DNA from: a virus
Length of the DNA: 64,000 nt
Virus record (IMG/VR): IMGVR_UViG_3300005731_000013
Span: 1 to 64,000 of that record
Reading direction: 5' to 3' (one strand)
Shown: positions 5,987 to 42,948 of the stretch, piece after piece
Numbering within the stretch: position 1 is the first letter of the stretch
Layout: every line of letters begins with the position of its first letter
The notes under the pieces: model-generated
What the model was told of the DNA's origin: nothing
Database searches by the model: none
The model's input: only the letters and a program-made list of their open reading frames with translations
Position numbers and translations under genes: made by a program

Positions 5987-6316
5987 TTAAGTAATCAATT
6001 TAGATGTCGATTGTTGAGATAGATCAACACCACTTATTTGTTTGACATAATAATCTGCAAATTTCTTACCTGTTTTGATTACAGTAACAACCGAGTGCAT
6101 TGCAAAAGAAATGTTGCCATCACCTTCATTAAGATATTCAACCGACATAATATAAGGTGCCAGGCCAATTGACCCTTCTCTGGTCGGCACAGGTACAAGT
6201 GGTTTTCGCAACACAATTGATGTCAAACTACTTTCTTTATAATATCCCATGATTTCTTCGCCAGTTGATAATTTTACCGTCACTACGTCATTTTCTTTAA
6301 ATTTTGATTCTAGCAT
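5987..6316 (-). CDS. Small beta-rich (LSm-like) conserved protein
   Basis: The first 25 residues read like an Sm/Hfq-type strand pair (NDVVTVKLSTGEEIMGYY), followed by a second run of strands with LRKPLVPVPTREG and SVVTVIKTGKKFADYYV. The protein is 109 residues. Similar proteins occur in T4-like cyanophages beside tail genes. RNA binding is not shown, and the fold could equally serve as a structural adaptor. Its start abuts the stop of the glutaredoxin gene. Confidence 0.5.
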   Translation of the reverse strand: MLESKFKENDVVTVKLSTGEEIMGYYKESSLTSIVLRKPLVPVPTREGSIGLAPYIMSVEYLNEGDGNISFAMHSVVTVIKTGKKFADYYVKQISGVDLSQQSTSKLIT

Positions 6317-6564
6317 TAATTTTTCCTTGATCCATTATATTGTTCACAAAATATTTCTAATTCATTATATCCACCAACATATTCACCGCGGACTAAAATC
6401 TGTGGTACTGTTTTGGCATCTGGGACAACTTCCAATAACTGTTCCTTTGACCATTCATCTGATGATAGATTTCGTTCCTCGAAAGCAATATCATTTTGTT
6501 TCAATAATTGTTTTGCCATATCACAATATGGACACCCGTTTTTACTCCAAACAACTGTATTCAT
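6316..6564 (-). CDS. Glutaredoxin
   Basis: This 82-residue thioredoxin-fold protein has the classic CPYC dithiol motif at residues 11-14 (WSKNGCPYCDMAK), the cis-Pro loop in TVPQILV, and the GGYNEL glutathione-binding segment. It sits just downstream of the ribonucleotide reductase and probably recycles reductants for dNTP synthesis, although class II enzymes often use thioredoxin instead. Its short spacing to nrdJ, with hairpins between, suggests partial cotranscription. Confidence 0.9.
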   Translation of the reverse strand: MNTVVWSKNGCPYCDMAKQLLKQNDIAFEERNLSSDEWSKEQLLEVVPDAKTVPQILVRGEYVGGYNELEIFCEQYNGSRKN

Positions 6565-6615
6565 TATTTTCCTTAAATTTTATAAACAAAGATCTCGTAA
6601 TCTTTTGATATTTTT

Positions 6616-6643
6616 AATATAAGCAATAAGTCTGCTTATATTA
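6616..6643 (-). terminator. Hairpin upstream of glutaredoxin
   Basis: A perfect stem (TAATATAAGCA paired with TGCTTATATTA) lies between nrdJ and the glutaredoxin gene. It lacks a strong T-tract, so attenuation or processing is as likely as termination. Confidence 0.4.
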
Positions 6644-6650
6644 AGTATAG

Positions 6651-6678
6651 GTATAGAGGAGGTAGACCTCCTCTATAC
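6651..6678 (-). terminator. Very stable hairpin after nrdJ
   Basis: A 13-bp perfect inverted repeat (GTATAGAGGAGGT / ACCTCCTCTATAC) with a 2-base loop sits 10 bp past the nrdJ stop. There is no T-run. It probably acts as terminator, attenuator or 3' mRNA stabiliser. Confidence 0.55.
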
Positions 6679-6688
6679 TTGATTTAGA

Positions 6689-9600
6689 TTAAATTTCGCA
6701 TCCGCCGCCGGCACACGCAATTGCACCCATCGTATCAATATCAGTATATGATTTTTCTGCCAATCCTGAATTAAAATCTACTGGTTGCATATTCTGTTGA
6801 ATTTTTGACCACTTATGTAACAAATATACATCTTTTAAGCAATATTCTGCCATTTTCATATCACCATCAAAATAATTAGTAGCAAAATTCTTAAATCTAC
6901 GAATCCAATCTGCGCCCAGATCAGCCTGTTCGCCGCTTTGTGCTTCTTCGTGTTGTGATGTAAATGTTGCTGACCATAAGTCACTAAATCCTTTAGAACT
7001 TTCAACAATCAATCCACTTGCAAATAAGGCTGCGCGACCATATTTCTGAATCAATTCTTCTTCAGTCAATACTTCTATAAATGGTGCTTGATTAAAATCC
7101 TTATCTCCACTAGCAGAAATAAAGCTAATGCCTGCAAAATAAGATCGATTATCAAACAAATATTGTTCTACCTCATCCCAATTATCATCAGCAACTTGAA
7201 CAGTATTCGATACATTATGTCTTACTGTAGGGTCGACACATAACTCTTCATCAGTTCCAAATTCAATCCAAGAATTTTGAACCAATTTTACTTTTTCAAG
7301 CAATTTAACACCATACAATTCTGTTTTAAATAATGACCCTTTTGGTGCAATAACAGGGAAAGATACAACATAATCAGTCCCGTTTGTGCTCCAAACACTA
7401 TCTTCAACCATATAAGGGTTTGTTTTAGCAATCAAATGTGCAACTTCTTGCTCTTTATTCATTTGCACATTTCGCAAGTAACGTGGCGAGTGATCGCCAT
7501 GAATGCCGCTCGATGTTCCTAGTAGTACAGATGCGTTACCACTTGGTTTAACACATGTTGTTCGTGCCGCTGCATTGATGCCTAATAGTGCTGCAACTTG
7601 CTTGTTAACTTTCTTGACAAGCTCTGCACCTTCTTTAAGAATTGCTTCGTCAAACAATACATCTGGGCTATTCATCCAACCAGTGATTGAAACACCAATA
7701 AGAGCTTCACGATCAAAAATCTTTTTGCTAATATCGTCAAGGAATTTAAAATCAGTATATCCAGCTTGTAAGGTTCCTAGGATAGCACCGACACGACATG
7801 CTTTTAGGAATTCTTCACGGGTTGTGCATTTTGCACCATTCAATTCACTAAGATTACAACCTTGCCAACCTGAATGTTTTTTACCTTTTTCATCAATATG
7901 AACAGGATACTTGCCAATCTCCACACAAGGGTTGTAAGTGTGTTCAGTTGATTCAGTAAACACAAACCCAGGTTCGCCGAACTCTTTAATTGACTTCATG
8001 ATTTCTGAAAACTGATCTCTGTCTGCTTCGCCACGAACAATGACTGCTGAATTGTTTGAACGACCGCGCTGAGGATTAGTGTTATACCAATCGCCTGTTT
8101 TCGCTTTAACCATTTCATCATCAGTTGGGCTGAATAGGCAAATAGTTGCTGAGCGGCGGACGCCTCCTGATAGAACTGCGTCTGCGGCATGCATACAAAT
8201 GTCATAAACTTCAATTGGTTTGAGTTTATCTCGACCAGCTAAGACTGCACCTTGGATAAGATGTTCAATTTTATCTAGTGCTTTACGTAGAGGCTCCGGA
8301 CCAGGTGCTTTGAACCCTCCGGAGATCATTGCTCCTTTAGGTCGAACTTTATTTAAATCAAAGTAGACGCGTCGGCCTTCGTATTCAGGGCGTTGGCCGC
8401 CACCAACAAAGAAACTTGCCATTAGAACGTCAAGTGCTGTTGCCCAACCTTCAATGCTGTCTTCAACTTCGTGAATCTTCGCTTGTCCTTTACGTTGAGT
8501 GACTTTTGGTAATTTTGCGACATGATGTGTTTGGACAGAAAAGCCAGCACCTGCGCCACATAGAAGAACGTAAAATAGTTCTCCAAAAAATGCTGCACGG
8601 TCTGCATATGAGCTGGTGCAATTACCTGTTGGAATACCTTTTTCCATAACAAAAGCATGGTCATCTTCAACTTCAAGGCACCAAACTGTTTCAATTTCGT
8701 CAGGAACGATAGATTCAACTTTCCATGATGCTGCAAATTTAGAATCTGTTATTGAAGAAAAACCAAATCTAATTGTATAACCACGCTCACCATAATTTGT
8801 TTTCGTTCCAGTTAAATCGACCTCACGATTTGGGTATATACCTGCGATTGGAAAGGCATTTCTTATAAATTCTGCTGCTTCTACATTTGAAGTTTGAATT
8901 CCTCTAAATTGTCCATGATCAAATTCAGAAACAGTTTTTTCACCATCTGCATCTAAATAACCTCTAACAAATGCACGAATCAAACGAGGGTCATCTTTTT
9001 TTGGATCTGGCAAAGTCTTTTTATATTTTCCAGTATATGCGATGACATCTCCTTCCAGGGATAAACTTGATGATGTTTTGAATCCTAGTTCTTTGAACCG
9101 ATATTCATACCCAACATCTTTATTACATAGTCTAACCATACTATGTGTTTTATTTACAGTGCCGTCACCATATACATATCCATATGCCCAATACAATTTT
9201 TCATCTGTCTCAGCGTCATCAAATTTAAAATCGTTAAATGTATTTTTAGTATGCATTAACGAGTCGCCAACCATCAAATTAGTTGTAATAGATCCATCCT
9301 TCAACAACCAACGGTGATCTTCAGTGAATCTGACAGTATGTGGAATGCCGCCATTTCGTCGAAATGTAATTTTATTGAGCTGTTGTTTGCCATAAGATTT
9401 AACTGTTGCTGATTTCCAATTTCCTTGTGGTGTTTTGACTTTAACAACATCGCCATCATTAAAATCATTGAATGATTGCATTCCATTTGTGGTCAAGAAT
9501 GTTGTTTCTCTCCCGCCACAGTTATACATTCGCATTTGGTGTTTAAGTATTTGTTCACCACCAAATTGCAATGCACGTTGCGCACCCAATACATATTTCA

Positions 9601-9802
9601 ATTTGTATAAGGCTTCAGCTTCGTCAATTAGTAACGACAATTCATCATTCATTTTGTCTTTATAGAACTCACGGTGCATACCCATAACACGGGTGACACT
9701 TTCTTCCCATGTTTCATATCTACCAACTTTGTCATTCCAACGGCTATAGCCTTCGTAAAATTTTGCTTCACCCATAAGGGCTCTTGTGTCGATATCTTTC
9801 AT
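6689..9802 (-). CDS. nrdJ: Class II (adenosylcobalamin-dependent) ribonucleotide reductase with intein
   Basis: The start at 9802 is fixed by AGGAGACGTA before the ATG; the frame stays open 17 codons further upstream without a ribosome site. The precursor is 1037 residues, with an intein at 95-394, leaving a 737-residue enzyme. Host-protein motifs include MRMYN-C-TSSYADR across the splice junction, VLLCGAGAGFSV, LSGGVRRSATI, NPCVEIG, GWQGCNLSELNG, PSGNASVLLG and a cysteine near the C-terminus (AGGGCEI). It reduces ribonucleotides to deoxyribonucleotides for phage DNA synthesis and needs host or environmental B12. There is no R2 subunit in the window, consistent with class II. The adjacent glutaredoxin supports a dNTP role. 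Confidence 0.9.
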   Translation of the reverse strand: MKDIDTRALMGEAKFYEGYSRWNDKVGRYETWEESVTRVMGMHREFYKDKMNDELSLLIDEAEALYKLKYVLGAQRALQFGGEQILKHQMRMYNCGGRETTFLTTNGMQSFNDFNDGDVVKVKTPQGNWKSATVKSYGKQQLNKITFRRNGGIPHTVRFTEDHRWLLKDGSITTNLMVGDSLMHTKNTFNDFKFDDAETDEKLYWAYGYVYGDGTVNKTHSMVRLCNKDVGYEYRFKELGFKTSSSLSLEGDVIAYTGKYKKTLPDPKKDDPRLIRAFVRGYLDADGEKTVSEFDHGQFRGIQTSNVEAAEFIRNAFPIAGIYPNREVDLTGTKTNYGERGYTIRFGFSSITDSKFAASWKVESIVPDEIETVWCLEVEDDHAFVMEKGIPTGNCTSSYADRAAFFGELFYVLLCGAGAGFSVQTHHVAKLPKVTQRKGQAKIHEVEDSIEGWATALDVLMASFFVGGGQRPEYEGRRVYFDLNKVRPKGAMISGGFKAPGPEPLRKALDKIEHLIQGAVLAGRDKLKPIEVYDICMHAADAVLSGGVRRSATICLFSPTDDEMVKAKTGDWYNTNPQRGRSNNSAVIVRGEADRDQFSEIMKSIKEFGEPGFVFTESTEHTYNPCVEIGKYPVHIDEKGKKHSGWQGCNLSELNGAKCTTREEFLKACRVGAILGTLQAGYTDFKFLDDISKKIFDREALIGVSITGWMNSPDVLFDEAILKEGAELVKKVNKQVAALLGINAAARTTCVKPSGNASVLLGTSSGIHGDHSPRYLRNVQMNKEQEVAHLIAKTNPYMVEDSVWSTNGTDYVVSFPVIAPKGSLFKTELYGVKLLEKVKLVQNSWIEFGTDEELCVDPTVRHNVSNTVQVADDNWDEVEQYLFDNRSYFAGISFISASGDKDFNQAPFIEVLTEEELIQKYGRAALFASGLIVESSKGFSDLWSATFTSQHEEAQSGEQADLGADWIRRFKNFATNYFDGDMKMAEYCLKDVYLLHKWSKIQQNMQPVDFNSGLAEKSYTDIDTMGAIACAGGGCEI
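8621..9520 (-). mobile_element. Intein with LAGLIDADG endonuclease in NrdJ
   Basis: The 300-residue insert begins with Cys (CGGRETTFLTTNG), has the block B motif TEDH, and contains two LAGLIDADG-type motifs, YWAYGYVYGDG and RAFVRGYLDADG. It ends VMEKGIPTGN before Cys+1. The acidic residues of both endonuclease motifs are present, so it may still cleave. The penultimate residue is Gly rather than the usual His, which occurs in some active inteins. The junctions follow from joining MRMYN to CTSSYADR, giving an uninterrupted reductase. Confidence 0.88.
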
Positions 9803-9813
9803 TACGTCTCCTA

Positions 9814-10329
9814 TTAATATTGATTTTGATCTAGATACGCTCGGATGTCCCACGATTCTCGTATCTCTAAAAAGTCAACATCATTCAGATCTATGACATT
9901 ACGTTGCATTGAATTCAAAGCATATTTACCATCAAAATTAGCGATCATATATTCGTCGTTGTAAGTCAGATCACGGACGCGATCAAGTGTGATATTAACA
10001 CTATTATCCATATAATACATATTATACGCCATCGCGAGACCTCTACTATACTTACAACATTCGCCTGAATCAATGATCTCCCAGACTGTTGGCCATTGCT
10101 CAGAATTGAAAGGATCTATAGCAACATTGACTTCTGGTGCTTGTTGCCACCAAATGCTAATTGCCTCTAATGAAGATAGCAAAATATTTCTGTTGCATTT
10201 ACTACGATCATTACTATAATGATTATAGTGATCTTGCAGATCAATTCTAAAAGTTCTCCAACTTGCTAGGCGTTCGTCAGGCGACCGCAACCACAAATTT
10301 TGTAACTGATTTATGTTCAGCTGTTCCAA
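9814..10329 (-). CDS. Conserved hypothetical protein upstream of nrdJ (171 aa)
   Basis: No ATG lies at the N-terminus; the only plausible start is a TTG at 10329. It gives a protein beginning LNINQLQNLWLRSPDERLAS after the initiator region. It is helical and Trp/Tyr-rich, with no recognised domain. It ends 11 bp before nrdJ and probably shares the promoter at 10446-10474, which has a 5' leader of roughly 110 nt. Co-expression suggests a role with dNTP synthesis, but this is inference only. Confidence 0.6.
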   Translation of the reverse strand: MEQLNINQLQNLWLRSPDERLASWRTFRIDLQDHYNHYSNDRSKCNRNILLSSLEAISIWWQQAPEVNVAIDPFNSEQWPTVWEIIDSGECCKYSRGLAMAYNMYYMDNSVNITLDRVRDLTYNDEYMIANFDGKYALNSMQRNVIDLNDVDFLEIRESWDIRAYLDQNQY

Positions 10330-26746: not shown

Positions 26747-28471
26747 CTATCTCCTGTTTAATATCCATTTTGAATGACCACAATCCCAAACTCGACTTAA
26801 ACCGAGACCTGTCATTATTTGTTTTTCTGATTGCGTAGGATCAAATCCTTCAGCGACCAATTTTTCTTTTTGTACATTCATACGATTTATTCGTTCACTA
26901 AAATTATATCTGTCTATATAAAAATATCCTGGATTTCCTCTAGAAACTAATTCAAATCCAATTTTATTATAAAAATCAGTATAACCCCAACAATTATTAG
27001 AAAATGTGATTATAACGGCAGGATCAACATCTTTAATAAATCTTGACAACAGTTTACTCGCACCACCGACAATATTTACACCTACACTGGAAGCAAACCG
27101 CACAATCTCCCATTCATTGCCATTTTTGAATCTATTCTTAGAAAATGTCATTACTGCCAGTAATTTGTCATTTTCGAATAAACCATATTTTAATTTTGAA
27201 TTGGCATACCCATCTAAATGATTAATGTCTAAAAAATCTCGGGCTTGTTGAACTGTCAATTCTTGTATTGTTGTATTACGTGCATAGATATTTATATTTT
27301 TTGATGTTATTGATTTAAGTCTAGACTTTACAATATCTTTATTTTTGTCCCATTCATCAGAAAAAATTTGTATTAACTTAACATTTTTTTCATTAGCGAG
27401 CTTTGTTTTATTATAATGGTAGAACTTATCTTTATCACATTCTTCAACATGCCAATAAAGCCCGTTTACTTCAATACCCAAATTTAACGTCGGAACATAT
27501 ATATCAATTTCTTTACCATCTAATATTTTACGATCTGAGCGTTGTATTTCAAAGCCTAGGCTTTCGATATATTCGCCAATTTCAAATTCAATATTGCTAT
27601 ATTTTAATGGTTTGCAAACAATACATCTAGATATTTGTCCATTTAAAATACGAGCTTGATAACTATTTCCACATTTCAAACATGTTACATTGTTATAAGT
27701 TGATGGGACATAATTTTCATCTATTTGAATATTATACTTTTCCTTATACCTCTGGACAAATGTTTTCTTTAAATTATTTGAAATCTTTTTTCTGACTACT
27801 GCATTTTTGGCAGGATTTTCATTTCCATATTTTTTTAAATTTGTTTTTTTAATTTGTTCAATATTGCAATAATTCTGATTTCCATATTTTTCTTGCTTTG
27901 TCTTCATACCACGTGTTGCAGCTAAATCATAATTGCGGTCTGCATGATTTTTTTCAATTATATCTGAATGCTGCATTACATTATCCACACCATAACGAGT
28001 TTGCACTGTTAATTTTGCTTTTTGTTTGATGCTGATATCTTGCATTGGATTCTCAACACCATAACGGTCTAAATTGGTCTGAGTTATTTTTTCTTTTACA
28101 GAATCATTTTGAAAAACATTCTCATTACCATACCGTTCTAGATTAGTGTCGGCTCTTTTTTTATTAATTGCGGCCTGTTCTTCTTGGGTATATTGTGCTT
28201 TTGTTTTTTTGACAGCCAATGATACTCTTTTAACATGACATGGACAATTTCTTTGACAAGCTCTGTAGCCGACACTGAATGAAATAAACCTGCTTTTGTC
28301 ACAATCCATTATTTTTTCTGGATAAACTAAATCAAATAATTCTTGTCCTGTCATTTTAAAGGAAAATAATGTTTCAATTTCTTTTAAACTTTTTCTAGAA
28401 CCCCACTGTCTAATCTGATTAAGATTTTTTCCAATCCACTTTTGTAACTTTGTAGGGATAATTTGATTCAC
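26747..28471 (-). CDS. Vsr-like homing endonuclease next to split UvsW
   Basis: The start is a GTG at 28471, overlapping the end of the UvsW C-half gene by 53 bp. The 574 residues contain five or six RYGVENP-type repeats (105-225), a zinc ribbon (CLKC at 264, CIVC at 283), the EDxHD-type nuclease core EIDIYVPTLNLGIEVNGLYW followed by His (321-341), then a GNAT-like region and the family C-end SRVWDCGHSKWI. The family matches the nuclease described with fractured genes. It probably mobilises the UvsW intein site. Confidence 0.85.
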   Translation of the reverse strand: MNQIIPTKLQKWIGKNLNQIRQWGSRKSLKEIETLFSFKMTGQELFDLVYPEKIMDCDKSRFISFSVGYRACQRNCPCHVKRVSLAVKKTKAQYTQEEQAAINKKRADTNLERYGNENVFQNDSVKEKITQTNLDRYGVENPMQDISIKQKAKLTVQTRYGVDNVMQHSDIIEKNHADRNYDLAATRGMKTKQEKYGNQNYCNIEQIKKTNLKKYGNENPAKNAVVRKKISNNLKKTFVQRYKEKYNIQIDENYVPSTYNNVTCLKCGNSYQARILNGQISRCIVCKPLKYSNIEFEIGEYIESLGFEIQRSDRKILDGKEIDIYVPTLNLGIEVNGLYWHVEECDKDKFYHYNKTKLANEKNVKLIQIFSDEWDKNKDIVKSRLKSITSKNINIYARNTTIQELTVQQARDFLDINHLDGYANSKLKYGLFENDKLLAVMTFSKNRFKNGNEWEIVRFASSVGVNIVGGASKLLSRFIKDVDPAVIITFSNNCWGYTDFYNKIGFELVSRGNPGYFYIDRYNFSERINRMNVQKEKLVAEGFDPTQSEKQIMTGLGLSRVWDCGHSKWILNRR

Positions 28472-29279
28472 GATAATATTTCTTTCGTTCTGTTAAATGA
28501 CGTTTTGAATATTTTGCTGAGCTGCATAAATCATAAATTTCAACATGATCTTTATCAAACCCTTTTCTTAGTCCGCGGCCAATACTCTGGATTACTCTTA
28601 CAAAACTTTTTCCTGGTTCCAATAATACCATGTTATTTATACGAATAATATTGATACCTGTAGATGCAACTCCAAACGTTGCGATAACAATTTTACCATC
28701 ACCATCTTTAAATTTATCGTATTCTGATTTTCTATCTTTACTATCCATTTTACCTGATACAAAAATAATATCGTCTATACCTAATTCATTCAATGCTTCA
28801 ACAATCATTTCTCCAGTTTTGATATTATTAACCAACACCAAAGTATTTGAATTATTAGAAATATTGTCAATAAATGAGGACAGCCAAACCATACGTTCTT
28901 TATTTGATGTCAAATATTTCATTTCTGAATGATAATTGTCATAAACAATATCATCTTTCAATTGTATAACATTAATATCACAGCTACTCAAAATTCCTTT
29001 ATCTTGTAATACGCTAGATTGTAATGATCCAACTGTTGGTCCTATGCCAACAGCAATCGACATCTCGAAATGTTTTTCTTTTGGAATTGTTCCTGTCAAC
29101 CCCCACCTAATAGGAACATTTGCAAATGGTCCGGTCAATAGTTTTTTCAAAACATCTGCTTTACCTAAATGGCAGTTTTTTACCACAGCATTATTAGCTA
29201 TATAATTATGATCATTTTCAACATGTAAATTATATACGGTGTCAGGCTTTGTTATTTTTGTTTTTTTTATAAGTTTCAT
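28419..29279 (-). CDS. uvsW: C-terminal half of UvsW helicase with N-terminal split intein C-piece
   Basis: Residues 1-35 are the C-intein (MKLIKKTKITKPDTVYNLHV, then ENDHNYIANNAVVKN). The extein follows with Cys+1: CHLGKADVLKK, completing the DEAH-type motif split as VDE/CH. The rest holds helicase motifs GLTGTIPK, TLVLVNNIKTG, VSGKMDSKDR, TFGVASTGINI and QSIGRGLRKG. It supplies motifs III-VI of the UvsW branch-migration helicase (508 residues after splicing). Partner gene is 63 bp upstream. Confidence 0.92.
   Translation of the reverse strand: MKLIKKTKITKPDTVYNLHVENDHNYIANNAVVKNCHLGKADVLKKLLTGPFANVPIRWGLTGTIPKEKHFEMSIAVGIGPTVGSLQSSVLQDKGILSSCDINVIQLKDDIVYDNYHSEMKYLTSNKERMVWLSSFIDNISNNSNTLVLVNNIKTGEMIVEALNELGIDDIIFVSGKMDSKDRKSEYDKFKDGDGKIVIATFGVASTGINIIRINNMVLLEPGKSFVRVIQSIGRGLRKGFDKDHVEIYDLCSSAKYSKRHLTERKKYYRESNYPYKVTKVDWKKS
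29175..29279 (-). mobile_element. C-piece of split intein in UvsW
   Basis: These 35 residues end in VVKN before Cys+1. Length and pattern (NLHVENDHNY, block F-like; terminal Asn) match DnaE-type C-inteins. The penultimate Lys replaces the usual His, as also varies in natural split inteins. Confidence 0.9.
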
Positions 29280-29342
29280 AAAAATGTTCTACTTTTTTCT
29301 TTGTATTTGTATCAAAATATTCAATTCGATAAATTAATCACA

Positions 29343-30425
29343 TTACCTTTTGGCATATGTATGTATGTCAATAATTTCCATTTCATTGGTAATTTGATCT
29401 GCTCTGACCCAACCAATGTTTTCTACTAGAAACTCATGATTTGCTGTGACACGTATTTTACTATTATCATCAAACTCTAATTCAAGCATATCTTCAGATT
29501 CTGATTTGGTTAAATTATTATGCACTTTAACAATAGTATCTTCTTTATATGTTAACGTTTTTTCATCTAAATTAATAATTTTATCACCAGGTTGTAAGTT
29601 TGATATCTTTTTCTCGCCATCTGGTGTTAAAATTAATGTGTCGCCATCAAGACACTCATCTACAATTACAGCATACACTCCTTCGATAAATTCTTCCAAA
29701 GATAGCTCACTTTTGCCTTCTTGGAAATTTTTGCGCATGACTTCTAAACTTTGCCACGTACATATCGTATGAGTTTTGCCTACATCTTTTCTATCACCAT
29801 AATAAACACCAACATCAAGTCCAAGGTTAATGTAGTCTTCTTCAGTTTGCGTTACAAGATCTTTATTCGGAACAATGACTATTGTCCTTGCGCCCGCACG
29901 ACCTGACGTTATTTTCTGCATCACCTCATCTTCAGGAGTGATACTTTTTTCGACCAAATCACTTAACGCAGCCGTGACGATTGTCTTACCAGCACCAGTA
30001 CCAACAACTTGGACTGCTTTTTCATTAGTAATGAAATTATTGATAACATCAAGCTGATAATCACGTAAAATGACAGGTTGGCCTGCCACTGGATGACCCT
30101 CTGGCCAAAGTCTGTCTTTGAAATGATCAATTGTGATAGGTTTTAAGTCAATTTTATAACGTTCACGACAATCATCTAATGAAACTTCGTATCCTTCTGC
30201 AATCAGAATAGGCAAAATTTCTTCAAGCAAGTTGATAAATGTTTTGCCACCTAATTGGAAGAACTGCACTTTACCATCCCACCGCCCCATTTTATAGGCA
30301 GGGACATGGTAAGCATGTGGTAACATGAAAGAAAATTTGTCATATAATTTTCTTCGCGTAGAGGTGTCTAAGTTATGAATTTTACAGTTTGTTTCATCCA
30401 GTAATTCAATTTTTGCTGTTTTCAT
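29343..30425 (-). CDS. uvsW: N-terminal half of UvsW helicase with split intein N-piece
   Basis: The 360-residue product has 257 extein residues: the UvsW N-terminal domain, the Q-like motif DYQLDVI, Walker A VGTGAGKTIV (142-148) and motif Ia to Walker B ending in VIVDE. Right after VDE the intein begins (CLDGDTLILTPDG) and ends in AKR-stop. T4 UvsW remodels recombination forks and ends origin-dependent replication. Here it can only be active after trans-splicing with the downstream gene. An excellent sigma70-like promoter is at 30509-30537. Confidence 0.93.
   Translation of the reverse strand: MKTAKIELLDETNCKIHNLDTSTRRKLYDKFSFMLPHAYHVPAYKMGRWDGKVQFFQLGGKTFINLLEEILPILIAEGYEVSLDDCRERYKIDLKPITIDHFKDRLWPEGHPVAGQPVILRDYQLDVINNFITNEKAVQVVGTGAGKTIVTAALSDLVEKSITPEDEVMQKITSGRAGARTIVIVPNKDLVTQTEEDYINLGLDVGVYYGDRKDVGKTHTICTWQSLEVMRKNFQEGKSELSLEEFIEGVYAVIVDECLDGDTLILTPDGEKKISNLQPGDKIINLDEKTLTYKEDTIVKVHNNLTKSESEDMLELEFDDNSKIRVTANHEFLVENIGWVRADQITNEMEIIDIHTYAKR
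29346..29654 (-). mobile_element. N-piece of split intein in UvsW (103 aa)
   Basis: The piece starts with Cys1, has a block B motif (VTANHEFLV, T..H) and ends where DnaE-type N-inteins end, at about 103 residues. With the 35-residue C-piece it forms a canonical split intein without an endonuclease domain. Confidence 0.9.
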
Positions 30426-36450: not shown

Positions 36451-36501
36451 TCATTTTAATATATCCTATTAAAATGATCACAGGGCCTAAGGCCCTGTGA
36501 T
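36451..36501 (-). terminator. Double hairpin between gp32 and uvsX
   Basis: Two adjacent stems, TCATTTTAAT/ATTAAAATGA and ATCACAGGGCC/GGCCCTGTGAT, end the gp32 unit. The second is strong; the T-tract is modest. Confidence 0.7.
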
Positions 36502-36520
36502 ATATTATTGTGTGTTTTTA

Positions 36521-37486
36521 TCAGCTATTTTTACTGCGCTGTTGGATTTTTGCTAGAATATCCTTAGCGTCAGTAACTGGACGTGAATTTTGTGTTTCAC
36601 TTGCGTCTGGCTGATTGACAGGCGCAGTAGGTGTGATTGGCGCTTCAGCTTTTGGTGTTACATTAGCTGCACGATCACTTGAGTCTTTCTTCGGTGCTTC
36701 CATACCGTATGGACGATAATAATCTGCAAACCGTTCTGGATCATATAACTCACCATCTACGCTTGCTTCAAACATATTGAAGATAACTTGCAATTCTTCA
36801 GCATTTGGCTTTTTAGGTAAGAAATCATTCAAATCATACAGCCCATGCGTTGCAATAATGTCACGTTCTTCTTGATTCAACGAGCGTTCTTTACGAGCCC
36901 AATTACTTGTTGTATAATCCGCATATTGACCTTTTTTGGTTTTGGTAATACGGAAATCAACACCTTGATCATAATCTGTTGGCAAATATTCACCAAAATC
37001 TGGATCCATCAATGCACTTTTAATGATGTTATTAATTTGTGTATTGATGATCAAACGACGAATTGGATTCTCTGGTGTTTCTTCTTCAGTAAATGCACTG
37101 TTTACAACTAATGCCTGATAAATGAAGCTACGCTTTTTCCAATATTTACGAGCCATGTCTTCCATGCTCGGATCCTTGAACCAAGGACGAATTTCGTCAT
37201 GAATAGGGCATTTCATACCATCCCACATTTCTACACATGGAACCTTAATAGTAACAGGTTTATTTTCGTCACCACCTTTAATCCCACTAAATGTGATATT
37301 AATCATTTGACGCTCACGCCAAAAGAAATCATTGTTCGTATTACCGTCTGGTAGGAAACGAACTACAGATGTTTCATTTTCAGGAGTATTCCAATGTGGG
37401 TAAATTGCGTTATCTGAACTGCCTTTTACGCCTTTTTGCTTCTCTTGTGCTAGAAGCTTTTCTCTAATTTCAGCTAGTGTTGCCAT
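36521..37486 (-). CDS. gp32: Single-stranded DNA-binding protein gp32
   Basis: The 321-residue protein has a basic LAST-like N-terminus, an OB-fold core with a zinc site (VPCVEMWDGMKCPIHDEI, Cys/Cys/His ligands), and an acidic, Pro-rich linker leading to a short C-terminal tail. It coats ssDNA and recruits UvsX/UvsY, gp41 and the polymerase. It has its own early promoter. Confidence 0.9.
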   Translation of the reverse strand: MATLAEIREKLLAQEKQKGVKGSSDNAIYPHWNTPENETSVVRFLPDGNTNNDFFWRERQMINITFSGIKGGDENKPVTIKVPCVEMWDGMKCPIHDEIRPWFKDPSMEDMARKYWKKRSFIYQALVVNSAFTEEETPENPIRRLIINTQINNIIKSALMDPDFGEYLPTDYDQGVDFRITKTKKGQYADYTTSNWARKERSLNQEERDIIATHGLYDLNDFLPKKPNAEELQVIFNMFEASVDGELYDPERFADYYRPYGMEAPKKDSSDRAANVTPKAEAPITPTAPVNQPDASETQNSRPVTDAKDILAKIQQRSKNS

Positions 37487-39332: not shown

Positions 39333-39385
39333 AATTGGAGTTTTGACTCAATTAAATTACGATAATGCATCACAAAACTCCAATT
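39333..39385 (-). terminator. Inverted repeat spanning the TerL stop
   Basis: AATTGGAGTTTTG at 39333-39345 pairs with CAAAACTCCAATT at 39373-39385, which includes the last TerL codons. The 27-base loop is long. It may be a processing or termination structure. The rest of 39205-39369 holds no gene. Confidence 0.45.
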
Positions 39386-40458
39386 GGCATAGGACGACGA
39401 AGATCACTATCATCAAAACTATCTTTCAAATCATCAAATGCTTCTGGATCGTATTTTGCAACTTGCATCGCCATTCTAACAGCCAACAATGTTGACATAA
39501 CCAAATCATCTGTTTCGCCTTCTTTTGCTGCATAGCTATTGCCTTTTGCAACAAATGTTTTAAGTTCACGAGTTAAATTCTTACTACGGATTTTCATGGT
39601 ATCTTCTTCAACCCATCGCTTTAACTTTGCACATGCAGCTAGTTTTGAAGAATGTGTTGTGTTGAATCCTTTACGGTAACGTTTAACATTACCCCGCCGT
39701 TTCGGCTCGCTTAAGAACACACCTGGAATGTTTTCTTCGCCCATCTCCTCAATAGAGACTAGTGCTGCCTCGCCTAACGTATTGTTTTCAACTGAATAAT
39801 AGATTTCACTATTGGGTGCTGACTCTTCTAACTCTTCTAAAATGCCACGCATGATTTTAATTTGACTTTGCACTGTTGTTTTGTTATGCTGCCATTCACC
39901 AATTTGTTTCATCCCAGGGATTGCATAAATTTGAATGGCAGATGGGTCGCCACCTGTACCTAAACTAGGGTCAAGTGACACGATGTAAGTCTGTCCATCT
40001 TTGATTGTGTCATACCAACGCACCTGTCCTGAACGACGCATTGGTTCCATACCTAAATCCATATCAGTCAGGAATAAGGCGCTAATAAGTGTTTCATCAA
40101 ACGCAATAAATTCGCAGTTTGAAACTAAAATATCATTGCCATAAAATCTATTTCCGCCGTCAACACCAATTAAGTCATATACTGCTTCGATTCGACCAGT
40201 ATATTTTGCTGCTGTCACTATTAATGGATCACCCAAAGCTGATACTTTATCACCAACTTTAAATAAATCAGCGGATCGTTTGTTCCCGTCAACATCATAA
40301 ATTTCATGATTATCAGTGCATTCAATAAATTGACCATTATCAAAATCAAGACGGTATATGGGCTTATCACCCATATATGATATTCCTTTGAAATGTTGAT
40401 AACCATTATGGGTTAAAATTTTTAACCCTTTTGTGTTTTCTTTAAAAATCTGAGTCAT
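39370..40458 (-). CDS. terL: C-terminal half of terminase large subunit with atypical C-intein
   Basis: I choose the ATG at 40458 (MTQIFKENTKGLKI), 8 bp after the endonuclease stop. Residues 1-114 are a long C-intein with block B motif CTDNHEIYD and terminal LVSN. The extein (248 residues) starts CEFIAFDETLISALFL and carries the nuclease: SLDPSLGTGGD, the Glu in YYSVENNTLGEAAL and the Asp in ETDDLVMSTLLAV. T4 gp17 cuts concatemeric DNA and powers packaging. The joint EHL-CEFIAFDE restores a continuous terminase. Confidence 0.92.
   Translation of the reverse strand: MTQIFKENTKGLKILTHNGYQHFKGISYMGDKPIYRLDFDNGQFIECTDNHEIYDVDGNKRSADLFKVGDKVSALGDPLIVTAAKYTGRIEAVYDLIGVDGGNRFYGNDILVSNCEFIAFDETLISALFLTDMDLGMEPMRRSGQVRWYDTIKDGQTYIVSLDPSLGTGGDPSAIQIYAIPGMKQIGEWQHNKTTVQSQIKIMRGILEELEESAPNSEIYYSVENNTLGEAALVSIEEMGEENIPGVFLSEPKRRGNVKRYRKGFNTTHSSKLAACAKLKRWVEEDTMKIRSKNLTRELKTFVAKGNSYAAKEGETDDLVMSTLLAVRMAMQVAKYDPEAFDDLKDSFDDSDLRRPMPIGVL
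40117..40458 (-). mobile_element. C-piece of atypically split TerL intein (114 aa)
   Basis: The piece starts soon after a short N-piece would end and carries block B onward, as in the AceL-TerL type, where the N-piece is only about 25-30 residues. It ends VSN before Cys+1, with Ser in place of the penultimate His. Confidence 0.92.
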
Positions 40459-40466
40459 GCATATAT

Positions 40467-42029
40467 TTATGCATGCCATACCCATTTGATTTTTCCTGAA
40501 TCCCAGGTACGTAAAATGCCAGCATTGTTAGTCATTTGAAATTCTGTTAAATCATCTGAATAATATTCAGGCAATTTGTTTTTAATTCCTTTACGTGTGA
40601 AATAACTACAATGTCTCCATTTATTATCATACAAGTATCTATATGTTGGGCGTTGTTCTTCAATTTTTGTAAACCCTGTTTTTTCATATAAGTCACCAGT
40701 AAACCAATCATTCATTGAAAATGATACTACTTTATCGAATTTCAATTCGTTCTGTGCAAATTTAAAAGTTTTACTGAATAGACCTGGATGTGTATATTCA
40801 TCTGTCACCCACCGTTTTAATTCAAAATGTTGATTGCGTGACATACCAAATGACATTACACCTATTATTCGATGCATTGCATCAAATGCCGCAAAATGCG
40901 TTCCTGCTACATATCCTTGAAGGTGATATTTATTTAAAAAAAGTTTGGCAGCCTTACCTGAAATTTTATCAATTGTTGCTTTTCTAGCAGGGACGCCACG
41001 ATTCTTTAAATTCAATGAAGATTGGATCATTCTTTTGAATTTATCTTTATTATTATTCCAATCTGTCTCCCAAATCTGAATTAATCTTATTCCTTGATTG
41101 CGGGCTGAGTTCCATTTGTCTTGATGATATTTTTTATCTCTTTTTAAATCACTATGCCAATAATCGCCATTCATTTCAATTGCAAGATTATGACTTGGCA
41201 TGTAGAAATCCAATTCATAAGGAGGTATAATAGTTCTTATATTTTGATCAAATGTCACATTACAGTCATTCAAAAATGTTGCCATTTCCTGTTCTAAATA
41301 TGATGTTTTTAAAAATTCTGTTAAATTATGTTCGTGAATTTTTCGAATGATTGTAGATTTATTAACGCCAATTTCTTGAGCTAACTCACGGATAGATTTA
41401 GTTGTCAGTTCATGTTTTAGATTTGATTTATCTGATAAAATTAATTGGTATTTTGTCTCAATATGCTTATTATTGAAATGTGAATTTCCATATCTATCGT
41501 AATTAGTCTGAATTTTTTTATGCTGTATCGCTGCACTTAAAGATGGATTTTCAACACCATAGTTTTTTATTAAAGTCTCTGTTTTTCTTTGTTTTATAAT
41601 ATCACATTGTGACGGATTTTCAACACCATATTTGGACAAATTAGTTTGAAGTCTAATTTGTTGACCATGTTCAGTTTGTGAATGATATTTGACTCCAAAA
41701 TTTTGTAATGAGGTTTGCTCTTTTTTCAGCTTGACTTCAGAAGAATTATTACTGCATTTTGAACTACAATAACTTCTATAATTACCTCGTTCAGTCTGAT
41801 AGTGCGGGTTAACCACATTGTCCCATTTAACAGGTTGATTACAAGCAGAATTCATACAAGTCAACACACTATTATGTCCAGACATCAAATGCCAAACAAT
41901 TTGTTTGGGTGTAGCATTTATCTGTATTTCTTCATCTAATACTGATAGATCGTATGATTTTAATAATGAACGAGCAATCCTTTTTTGAGCATATAACTTT
42001 TGTAATTCAGACTGATTCATAATAATCAT
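40467..42029 (-). CDS. Vsr-like homing endonuclease inserted in the terL locus
   Basis: The 520 residues (ATG at 42029 or three codons later) contain a Cys-rich finger (C58, C63, C88, C92), YGVENP repeats (104-190), a helix-turn-helix (KSIRELAQEIGVNKSTIIRK), the nuclease core YELDFYMPSHNLAIEMNGDY followed by WHSD (271-294), a GNAT-like region and the family end TWDSGKIKWVW. It lies between terL-N and terL-C, 16 and 8 bp from them. It is the mobilising enzyme of the split-intein locus. Confidence 0.88.
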   Translation of the reverse strand: MIIMNQSELQKLYAQKRIARSLLKSYDLSVLDEEIQINATPKQIVWHLMSGHNSVLTCMNSACNQPVKWDNVVNPHYQTERGNYRSYCSSKCSNNSSEVKLKKEQTSLQNFGVKYHSQTEHGQQIRLQTNLSKYGVENPSQCDIIKQRKTETLIKNYGVENPSLSAAIQHKKIQTNYDRYGNSHFNNKHIETKYQLILSDKSNLKHELTTKSIRELAQEIGVNKSTIIRKIHEHNLTEFLKTSYLEQEMATFLNDCNVTFDQNIRTIIPPYELDFYMPSHNLAIEMNGDYWHSDLKRDKKYHQDKWNSARNQGIRLIQIWETDWNNNKDKFKRMIQSSLNLKNRGVPARKATIDKISGKAAKLFLNKYHLQGYVAGTHFAAFDAMHRIIGVMSFGMSRNQHFELKRWVTDEYTHPGLFSKTFKFAQNELKFDKVVSFSMNDWFTGDLYEKTGFTKIEEQRPTYRYLYDNKWRHCSYFTRKGIKNKLPEYYSDDLTEFQMTNNAGILRTWDSGKIKWVWHA

Positions 42030-42056
42030 ATTACTATCATTTTAGTTATTTGTCAA
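42028..42056 (-). promoter_or_regulatory. sigma70-like promoter inside the N-intein
   Basis: The minus strand has TTGACA, 17 bp, TAATAT, with the -35 in the last intein codons. It would express the endonuclease early, independently of late terL transcription; the predicted start is very near the ATG. Confidence 0.45.
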
Positions 42057-42948
42057 TGGTTTCAAACAGATCACCAATTGTCTGATCATATTCGCCATTT
42101 TCATCCATTAATTTCAATAGTGTATTGTATGTCAAACAAAGGTGTTCACGACGGAATCTCTCATCACCAATCTTTTGTTGTTCTTCATCTGCCCATGCCT
42201 GGTCTCGATCTGGGTGCTCTTCCCACGTAACAATATATGGACGGAATCCATTTGTTCCGACTTCTGTTTCATTACCATAATCATCAAGGCGTTTATTAGC
42301 CTGCTTCCAAATTTGAGCAAATTGGTCATCATCTTGGTTAGGCGTAGAAGTGATAATACATTTACCACCTGTAGATAGAGTTGGTGAAATAGAGGTCCAA
42401 AATTCCTGCGCAACACGAGGTGGTACAAACGCAAATTCGTCCAAGTAAACTAGCGAAAGTGACAAACCTCGGCCTGTGTTTTCTGTAGTAGCCTGTGCAA
42501 TAATCTTGCTACCGTTGTCAAATTCAATGCTACCTTTATTATATGCAGTAACACCTGCACGAATATGATCTGGGCAACTTTCATACATGTAACGCAATCG
42601 TGTCATGATTTCATTTGCACCATCACGTTTATGTGCAGCCACAAGAATTGTTTTATCAGACTGAAACATTGCAAACCAAAGTAAGTATGCAGCCGCACAT
42701 GTTGATTTACCAGTTTGCCTAGAGAGCAAACTGATTGAATATCTGTAATCGTTATAGGAATTAATCAATCCTACTTGATAATCATATAACTCGAATGGCA
42801 TACGACCTTTAGTAGGATGTTGAATATAACAATAGTTACGGATAAAGTGCAACGGATTGATTGAACATAATGCCAATTCTTTAAGTTGATGTTGACTGAC
42901 CGTTTCTTCTTGGTATGGTTTTTTGATTAAGTCTGTATTGACAGCCAT
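42046..42948 (-). CDS. terL: N-terminal half of terminase large subunit with short N-intein
   Basis: The 300-residue product has 270 extein residues: the gp17 ATPase with Walker A LLSRQTGKSTCAAAY (76-83), Walker B LSLVYLDEFAFV, and motif TSTPNQDDDQ, ending RFRREHL. A 30-residue N-intein follows (CLTYNTLLKLMDENGEYDQT and on to TIDK-stop). Alone it has no nuclease. Packaging needs trans-splicing with the partner 2 kb downstream. It is preceded by gp16 and two late genes. Confidence 0.93.
   Translation of the reverse strand: MAVNTDLIKKPYQEETVSQHQLKELALCSINPLHFIRNYCYIQHPTKGRMPFELYDYQVGLINSYNDYRYSISLLSRQTGKSTCAAAYLLWFAMFQSDKTILVAAHKRDGANEIMTRLRYMYESCPDHIRAGVTAYNKGSIEFDNGSKIIAQATTENTGRGLSLSLVYLDEFAFVPPRVAQEFWTSISPTLSTGGKCIITSTPNQDDDQFAQIWKQANKRLDDYGNETEVGTNGFRPYIVTWEEHPDRDQAWADEEQQKIGDERFRREHLCLTYNTLLKLMDENGEYDQTIGDLFETIDK
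42049..42138 (-). mobile_element. N-piece of atypically split TerL intein (30 aa)
   Basis: The piece begins Cys1-Leu-Thr and is only 30 residues. Such tiny N-inteins are known from AceL-TerL-type inteins. Confidence 0.9.

What the first reader, a model, noticed from the sequence alone, without database searches (positions are those of the whole stretch)
39370..42948. Terminase large subunit split by an atypical split intein with an endonuclease gene between the halves
Seen: terL-N ends in 30 codons beginning CLTYNT and terminating; 1.6 kb further on, terL-C begins with 114 codons ending LVSN before CEFIAFDE. Joining EHL to CEFIAFDE restores a full gp17. Known: AceL-TerL inteins have tiny N-pieces, and fractured genes with free-standing Vsr-like endonucleases between split-intein halves were described from marine metagenomes. 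Inference: this locus shows the intact, mobile-looking arrangement in one phage contig, with packaging dependent on trans-splicing.
Basis: partly seen in the sequence, partly recalled or inferred. Interest (0 to 1): 0.9.

Follow-up and report, generated by a model that had tools for sequence, protein, structure and literature searches.

The report
Split-intein terminase with swappable endonuclease
In this phage the gene for the DNA-packaging motor is broken in two, each piece carries half of a protein-splicing element that should rejoin the halves, and a DNA-cutting gene that probably helps the element spread sits between them; related phages keep the same splicing halves but carry different, doubled or decayed cutters in that slot.

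Summary
terL is broken at codon 270/271. The N half ends in a 30-aa intein-N piece, a 520-aa endonuclease gene follows, and the C half starts with a 114-aa intein-C piece. The joined exteins make a 518-aa T4-gp17-type terminase. 24 of 27 terL loci found by sequence search read straight through the same codon boundary. IntC matches the engineered atypical TerL intein Cat (PDB 6dsl, E=8e-15); the endonuclease core matches I-Bth0305I (3r3p, E=4e-4). No intact terL lies elsewhere in the 168-kb contig. So this is a new member of a known kind: an AceL/GOS/Cat-type atypically split intein in a 'fractured gene'. What I have not seen described is the endonuclease slot. In eight contigs where it is visible, the same split intein carries a different nuclease lineage (HEN2, three relatives), two nucleases in tandem (one), a truncated HEN2 (three), or, in the window, a third lineage from an 8-member family in its own genome. 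Between two relatives the cassette is 83-98% identical in DNA while flanking terL is about 74% (third positions, p=1e-9), which indicates recent horizontal movement. Trans-splicing, dependence of packaging on it, and cutting of terL by this nuclease are inferred, not shown.

The parts
42139..42948 (-). terL N-extein, 270 codons: ATPase domain (Walker A SRQTGKST, Walker B VYLDEF, STPN motif)
   Evidence: Terminase_6N E=4.6e-20; T4 gp17 E=1.5e-51, joined query
42046..42138 (-). intein-N, 30 codons (C1; LFETID block) plus stop
   Evidence: same length and stop position in L001 and L002, 29 aa in L034; adding it to IntC raises the Pfam Intein_splicing score from 17.6 to 22.6 bits
40467..42029 (-). 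free-standing homing endonuclease, 520 aa (repeat/HTH DNA-binding part, then nuclease core)
   Evidence: phrog_3339 homing endonuclease E=5.6e-93; DUF7487 7.5e-11, MTES_1575 REase 7.9e-6
41019..41273 (-). nuclease core of the endonuclease (residues 253-337, ELDFYMP...LAIEMNGDYWH)
   Evidence: PDB 3r3p 'Mobile intron protein' E=3.9e-4
40117..40458 (-). intein-C, 114 codons (block B TDNH, C-terminal VSN)
   Evidence: Cat intein 6dsl_B E=8.3e-15 profile, 2.7e-11 single; conservation; coordinates
39370..40116 (-). terL C-extein, 248 codons + stop, Cys+1 first: nuclease domain
   Evidence: phrog_36964 E=1.6e-52; model vs T4 gp17 E=1.1e-7

Best explanation
terL of this T4-like phage carries a mobile, atypically split intein at the end of the ATPase domain (equivalent to T4 gp17 T353|A354). 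The two terminase precursors are made separately; the disordered 30-aa IntN docks on the 114-aa IntC to complete a HINT fold; class-1 splicing (Cys1, block-B Thr48/His51, Asn114, Cys+1) joins L270 to C271 and releases a 518-aa terminase. The endonuclease between the halves is made on its own and is expected to cut intein-free terL of co-infecting phages, so that repair copies the whole IntN-endonuclease-IntC cassette. The split intein is the stable part. The endonuclease slot is refilled: HEN2 lineage in relatives, HEN2 plus an EDxHD enzyme in one phage, N-truncated HEN2 in others, and in the window an EDxHD enzyme of a family with eight copies in this genome. Shown by sequence: anatomy, homology, empty sites, endonuclease replacement, horizontal movement in relatives. 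Inferred: splicing, cutting of terL, need for splicing in packaging.
For: Exact empty sites in 24 loci, DNA shown. IntC vs Cat intein 6dsl (model 89). Invariant Thr48, His51, Asn114 and Cys+1 in five IntC and Cys1 in the IntN set. Purifying selection on IntC (dN/dS 0.08-0.17 where dS is estimable). IntN stop and IntC start keep their positions among homologues although the spacer differs completely. No second terL in the contig (95) or in the L001 and L034 contigs. HEN: 6, 29, 98; independent lineages 72, 103. Mobility: identity block from inside the HEN2 tail to the intein 3' end against about 0.74 in terL, third positions 90/114 vs 112/248, Fisher p=1e-9; L002 is sister of intein-free L011 with support 100/99 (74).
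Against: No splicing or cleavage assay. The joined intein stays below Pfam's curated cut-off (22.6 vs 35.8 bits). The penultimate intein residue is Ser, not the usual His (H in L034), which may slow Asn cyclisation. IntN is too short to be matched on its own. The horizontal-transfer signal is between L002 and L003, not the window itself; window vs L001 shows equal divergence in intein and terL. The window HEN differs in lineage from HEN2, so its target may not be terL.
Confidence: 0.86

Rival explanations
1. The split intein splices, but it is a stranded passenger: the window endonuclease is an EDxHD 'squatter' that landed in the slot after HEN2 was lost, and its recognition site is elsewhere (the intein moves, if at all, only by collaboration or not at all).
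For: Window HEN groups with free-standing paralogues W_80k, W_83k and L029_a, not with the nuclease of L034; L029_a sits in a phage whose terL is intein-free; HEN2 lineage decays to a remnant in L071-L073 while the intein stays; intein and terL of window and L001 are equally diverged.
Against: The HEN is full length with an intact core and lies exactly between the halves in a compact cassette (1, 2, 29); two lineages have entered this same slot, which is easiest if occupants profit from the site.
Confidence: 0.3
2. Genes in pieces without splicing: ATPase and nuclease halves work as two polypeptides, as for T4-like nrdA broken by a homing endonuclease; the intein pieces are dead linkers.
For: The break is close to the ATPase/nuclease domain boundary of gp17 (93), so the halves could fold separately.
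Against: Intein residues needed for splicing are invariant across carriers and the intein is under purifying selection; dead linkers would drift. Relatives without the element have one full-length TerL.
Confidence: 0.06
3. The 1.6-kb insert is an RNA intron carrying an endonuclease gene and the message is spliced, as reported for ICP1 terL.
For: terL of ICP1 is spliced at RNA level next to a homing endonuclease gene (PMC10448857).
Against: No Rfam intron match in 28 kb around the locus; the coding sequence of HEN2 overlaps the IntC start in L001-L003 and L071-L073; both pieces are intein halves by sequence, with stop and start codons at conserved protein positions.
Confidence: 0.02
4. Pseudogene or assembly chimera.
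For: Metagenomic contig.
Against: Same arrangement in independent contigs and in cultured T4-like phages (45-54); all frames open; no frameshift.
Confidence: 0.01

Closest known systems
AceL-TerL, GOS-TerL and the consensus-engineered Cat intein (atypical split inteins; sizes in PMC11766414)
   Same: Short IntN (30 aa here; 25, 37 and 30 in those), long IntC (114; 104, 115, 104), Cys1/Cys+1 as in AceL and Cat, terminase host gene, IntC homologous to CatC.
   Different: Full phage context with endonuclease and empty sites is seen here. Penultimate Ser. Longer IntC. I could not read the AceL-TerL or Cat papers themselves, so the exact insertion site of those inteins is from memory (C-extein CEF), not tested.
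[quoted passage not shown] 2009, NAR gkp095; cited in the papers read, text not held)
   Same: Gene broken by split-intein halves with a free-standing endonuclease between; EDxHD/Vsr-like nuclease.
   Different: As I recall, those had canonical split sites (about 100 + 36 aa); here the split is after 30 aa and the endonuclease identity changes between relatives. AceL NrdHF (PMC7891396) is a fractured gene with a GIY-YIG enzyme.
I-Bth0305I (PDB 3r3p), EDxHD homing endonuclease
   Same: Nuclease core residues 253-337 match.
   Different: I-Bth0305I is an intron-encoded protein; here the gene stands between split-intein halves and has an extra C-terminal domain of about 180 aa.
Fractured terL of cultured T4-like phages: HY03, Yersinia TG1, kaaroe, JK32, phiS; Vibrio phage Va1
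   Same: terL broken by a homologous atypically split intein. In HY03/TG1 a 200-aa TnsA/endonuclease-I-like gene lies between the halves; in Va1 the break is at the same EH/FE|C site as here.
   Different: HY03, TG1 and the Krischviruses are split at Walker B (DE|CAF). In Krischviruses the nuclease is fused to IntN, in Va1 to IntC. None is annotated as a split intein.
Mycobacteriophage TerL inteins (PMC5050341)
   Same: Mobile inteins in TerL with tested splicing and cutting.
   Different: Those are contiguous inteins within the ATPase domain near P-loop, Walker B and C-motif; this one is split and lies at the end of the ATPase domain.

Membership tests
AceL/GOS/Cat atypical split TerL inteins | Split near the N end: IntN of about 25-37 aa, IntC of about 104-115 aa | tested here: met
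   30 + 114 aa; reference sizes PMC11766414
AceL/GOS/Cat atypical split TerL inteins | Sequence homology of IntC | tested here: met
   6dsl_B CatC E=8.3e-15 (profile) and 2.7e-11 (single sequence); Foldseek 6dsl 4e-3
AceL/GOS/Cat atypical split TerL inteins | Homology of IntN | tested here: inconclusive
   30 aa gave no PDB match; position, Cys1 and conservation fit; Pfam score rises when it is added
AceL/GOS/Cat atypical split TerL inteins | Splicing residues: Cys1 (or Ser1), TxxH, terminal Asn, Cys+1 | tested here: met
   alignments A2 and A5
AceL/GOS/Cat atypical split TerL inteins | Penultimate His of block G | tested here: not met
   Ser in window, L001-L003 and L071-L073; His in L034. 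Not universal in inteins, so taken as variation (own knowledge)
AceL/GOS/Cat atypical split TerL inteins | Trans-splicing activity | not testable with these tools
   needs co-expression
Fractured gene | Host gene in two ORFs, each fused to a complementary intein half, same strand, endonuclease between | tested here: met
Fractured gene | Intein-free homologues intact at the junction | tested here: met
   24 loci
EDxHD (I-Bth0305I-like) homing endonuclease | Nuclease core of that fold/sequence family | tested here: met
   3r3p E=3.9e-4, phrog_3339 E=5.6e-93
EDxHD (I-Bth0305I-like) homing endonuclease | Cuts the intein-free allele and drives homing | not testable with these tools
   only indirect: horizontal block in relatives with HEN2
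Group I/II intron | Intron RNA structure in the insert | tested here: not met
   no Rfam match

The most novel reading that the evidence does not exclude
The atypically split intein is a durable landing platform whose endonuclease is a replaceable module: the same intein halves at the same terL site have hosted at least three nuclease lineages (HEN2; an EDxHD enzyme related to the uvsW-side HEN in L034; an EDxHD enzyme from an expanded in-genome family in the window), once two at a time, and pass through decay states, so a fractured gene can restart its homing cycle by recruiting a new nuclease without changing the splicing element.
Probability: 0.55. Interest if true: 0.65.

Novelty: new member of a known kind. 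Interest (0 to 1): 0.52.

Why it matters
AceL/GOS-type inteins are used as labelling tools because their IntN is tiny, yet they are known mainly from metagenome fragments. This locus and its relatives give whole-phage context, exact empty sites, and a natural series (full nuclease, two nucleases, foreign nuclease, truncated nuclease, none) in one gene. That makes it testable whether a split intein keeps homing by changing its nuclease. Homologous, unrecognised fractured terL genes in cultured phages growing on E. coli K-12 type strains (kaaroe, JK32) would allow the experiment with a lab phage.

Tried and rejected
RNA intron: no Rfam hit (only a sub-threshold tmRNA-like match at 36479-36533). 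IntN homology by search: single sequence hit pentatricopeptide repeats through 'TYNTL', a repeat-inflated chance match with per-copy E about 900 or more; profile gave nothing. AlphaFold models were weak (TerL-C pLDDT 60, IntC part mostly under 60; HEN2 pLDDT 56, best PDB matches not significant, nearest named nuclease Vsr E=0.17), so the nuclease nature of HEN2 rests on its DUF7487/phrog_3339 relation and a PD-(D/E)xK-like YYPDIYIP..IIEVK motif. I could not fold IntN with IntC, since joined sequences are not accepted by that tool. Charge complementarity of the halves: both acidic, so no support. HEN2 remnant in the window: none found. Dassa 2009 not held. Loci L035-L044 and L075-L081 pulled in by IntC patterns are other inteins (helicase, polymerase, portal-like and other terminase genes), not this element.
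Full report
OBSERVATION. The reading is right to the residue. On the minus strand: terL N half 42046-42948 (270 aa of terminase, then 30 aa CLTYNTLLKLMDENGEYDQTIGDLFETIDK and stop); a 520-aa ORF 40467-42029 starting 16 nt after that stop; terL C half 39370-40458, whose first 114 residues end LVSN before CEFIAFDE. The IntC start codon lies 8 nt after the stop of the middle gene. An upstream in-frame ATG at 40485 is possible but conserved homologues start at MTQIFKEN.

HOST PROTEIN AND SITE. The N half is Terminase_6N; the joined 518 aa align with T4 gp17 at E=1.5e-51, and the junction EHL|CEF falls between gp17 T353 and A354, at the end of the ATPase domain (residue numbers from the aligned chain 3ezk, whose Walker A lysine falls at 166). 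The N half thus holds all ATPase motifs and the C half the nuclease. Only these two pieces are found in the 168-kb contig. The contigs of L001 and L034 also have only two pieces each.

EMPTY SITES. The first viral-contig scan returned 27 loci besides the window. In 24 the terminase runs uninterrupted through the exact codon boundary, reading RREHE-CEF, or REM(E/D) or REHG before CEF in more distant ones. Close ones are 80-88% identical in protein. Joining the exteins of the interrupted loci restores the same reading. So the insertion is precise and its absence is the common state.

INTEIN. IntC is homologous to CatC, the C piece of the consensus-engineered atypical TerL intein (PDB 6dsl: profile E=8.3e-15; single sequence 2.7e-11; model of TerL-C by Foldseek 4e-3). 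Over five carriers the block-B TDNH, terminal Asn and Cys+1 are invariant, and Cys1 of IntN is too. Fusing IntN to IntC in silico raises the Pfam Intein_splicing score from 17.6 to 22.6 bits, with the match now covering IntN residues 13-30; it stays below Pfam's cut-off. The penultimate residue is Ser in most carriers. Sizes (30 + 114) fit AceL (25/104), GOS (37/115) and Cat (30/104) as tabulated in PMC11766414.

ENDONUCLEASE. The middle gene is a homing endonuclease (phrog_3339, E=5.6e-93) with repeats/HTH in its first half and a nuclease core related to I-Bth0305I (3r3p, E=3.9e-4).

THE SLOT IS VARIABLE. In L001 (144-kb contig) and L002 the same IntN/IntC flank a different enzyme, HEN2 (357-359 aa, DUF7487 E about 1e-31); L003 is a contig end with the HEN2 tail. 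The end of the HEN2 gene overlaps the start of IntC in these loci. In L034 (195-kb contig, terL only 54/44% identical) there are two enzymes in a row: a HEN2 orthologue (about 40%) and an EDxHD enzyme. In L071-L073 the intein (43% IntC) remains but HEN2 is reduced to its C-terminal 122 or 86 residues. The window enzyme is not the orthologue of the L034 EDxHD enzyme: in the tree they are separated by branches with 100/99 support; the window enzyme groups with W_80k and W_83k of its own genome and with L029_a, while the L034 one groups with the uvsW-side enzyme. The window's genome holds eight enzymes of this family. L029_a, 45% identical, is free-standing in a phage whose terL is intein-free. 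So at least three nuclease lineages have occupied one split intein.

MOVEMENT. L002 and L003: terL C-extein DNA about 74% identical, third positions 112/248; IntC 90%, third positions 90/114 (Fisher p=1e-9). In 60-nt windows the high-identity block (0.83-0.98) begins inside the HEN2 tail and stops at the intein/extein junction. Upstream in HEN2, L003 is closer to L001 (0.77-0.85) than to L002 (0.50-0.69), so that gene is a mosaic. L002's nearest terL is intein-free L011 (support 100/99). This shows recent transfer of the cassette in relatives. For the window against L001, intein and terL are equally diverged, so there is no sign of very recent transfer there. dN/dS of IntC is 0.08-0.17 where dS is not saturated, and 0.16 for HEN2 of L001/L002.

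MECHANISM. Shown: anatomy, homology, empty sites, selection on the intein, replacement of the nuclease, transfer in relatives. Inferred from class-1 intein chemistry: docking of IntN, acyl shift at Cys1, transfer to Cys+1, Asn114 cyclisation. Inferred from homing in general: cutting of intein-free terL and copying of the cassette. The main open rival is that the window's enzyme is a squatter with another target.

KNOWN KINDS. Fractured genes with split inteins and EDxHD enzymes (Dassa et al. 2009; text not held, from memory and from citations) and AceL/GOS TerL inteins are described; AceL NrdHF is a fractured gene with a GIY-YIG enzyme (PMC7891396). The homing cycle, in which the nuclease decays after fixation while splicing stays selected, is standard (PMC1654191). 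I found no paper in the held library describing exchange of the nuclease in a split intein or the fractured terL of cultured T4-like phages; that library is partial. Hence 'new member of a known kind', with nuclease exchange as the novel reading.

Noticed in passing
window 26747-30425 (-): Second fractured gene: UvsW-like helicase N half ends in a 103-aa IntN (DE|CLDGDTL...), C half starts with a 35-aa IntC (...VVKN|CHLG), i.e. a canonical split; an EDxHD endonuclease follows the C half instead of lying between. Joined intein passes the Pfam cut-off (45.7 bits). L048-L054 carry the intein, L055-L061 are empty.
   Followed up: partly
window 6689-9853 (-): Ribonucleotide reductase with what looks by eye like a contiguous intein with LAGLIDADG-like motifs (CGGRETTFL...PTGN|CTSSYAD).
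   Followed up: no
G000 contig 26.7, 40.5, 48.1, 51.4, 63.2, 65.6, 80.7 and 83.4 kb: Eight full-length endonucleases of one EDxHD family in one 168-kb phage contig.
   Followed up: partly
L094 (G000 79497-82293): gp46-like AAA gene whose P-loop (GVGKA|QPLYSKIHTPKG) seems interrupted by a further intein; endonuclease W_80k, close kin of the terL one, overlaps its start.
   Followed up: no
L062-L070 (SCTP-2, phiS, JK32, TG1, Los1, Va1, VmeM-32, HY03, kaaroe) and L045 (Atu_ph07): Cultured phages with unannotated inteins in terL at three sites: P-loop (Atu_ph07, VmeM-32 N end), Walker B (HY03, TG1, Krischviruses, Los1, VmeM-32 contiguous), EH/FE|C (Va1). Krischvirus terL-N is fused to a TnsA-like nuclease, Va1 terL-C to a DUF559-like nuclease.
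   Followed up: partly
L066 (Campylobacter phage Los1): terL C half with IntC has no N half next to it in the 2.5 kb upstream shown; the N half must lie elsewhere, so splicing would join products of distant genes.
   Followed up: no
L037, L041, L043, L044 about 6167-6982: Intein in a DEAD/SNF2-like helicase stays open through an overlapping 267-271-aa endonuclease-like ORF in another frame (apparent dual coding); L039 lacks that ORF.
   Followed up: no
window 36479-36533 (-): Sub-threshold tmRNA-like match (14.9 bits, cut-off 47, E=0.029), probably chance.
   Followed up: no
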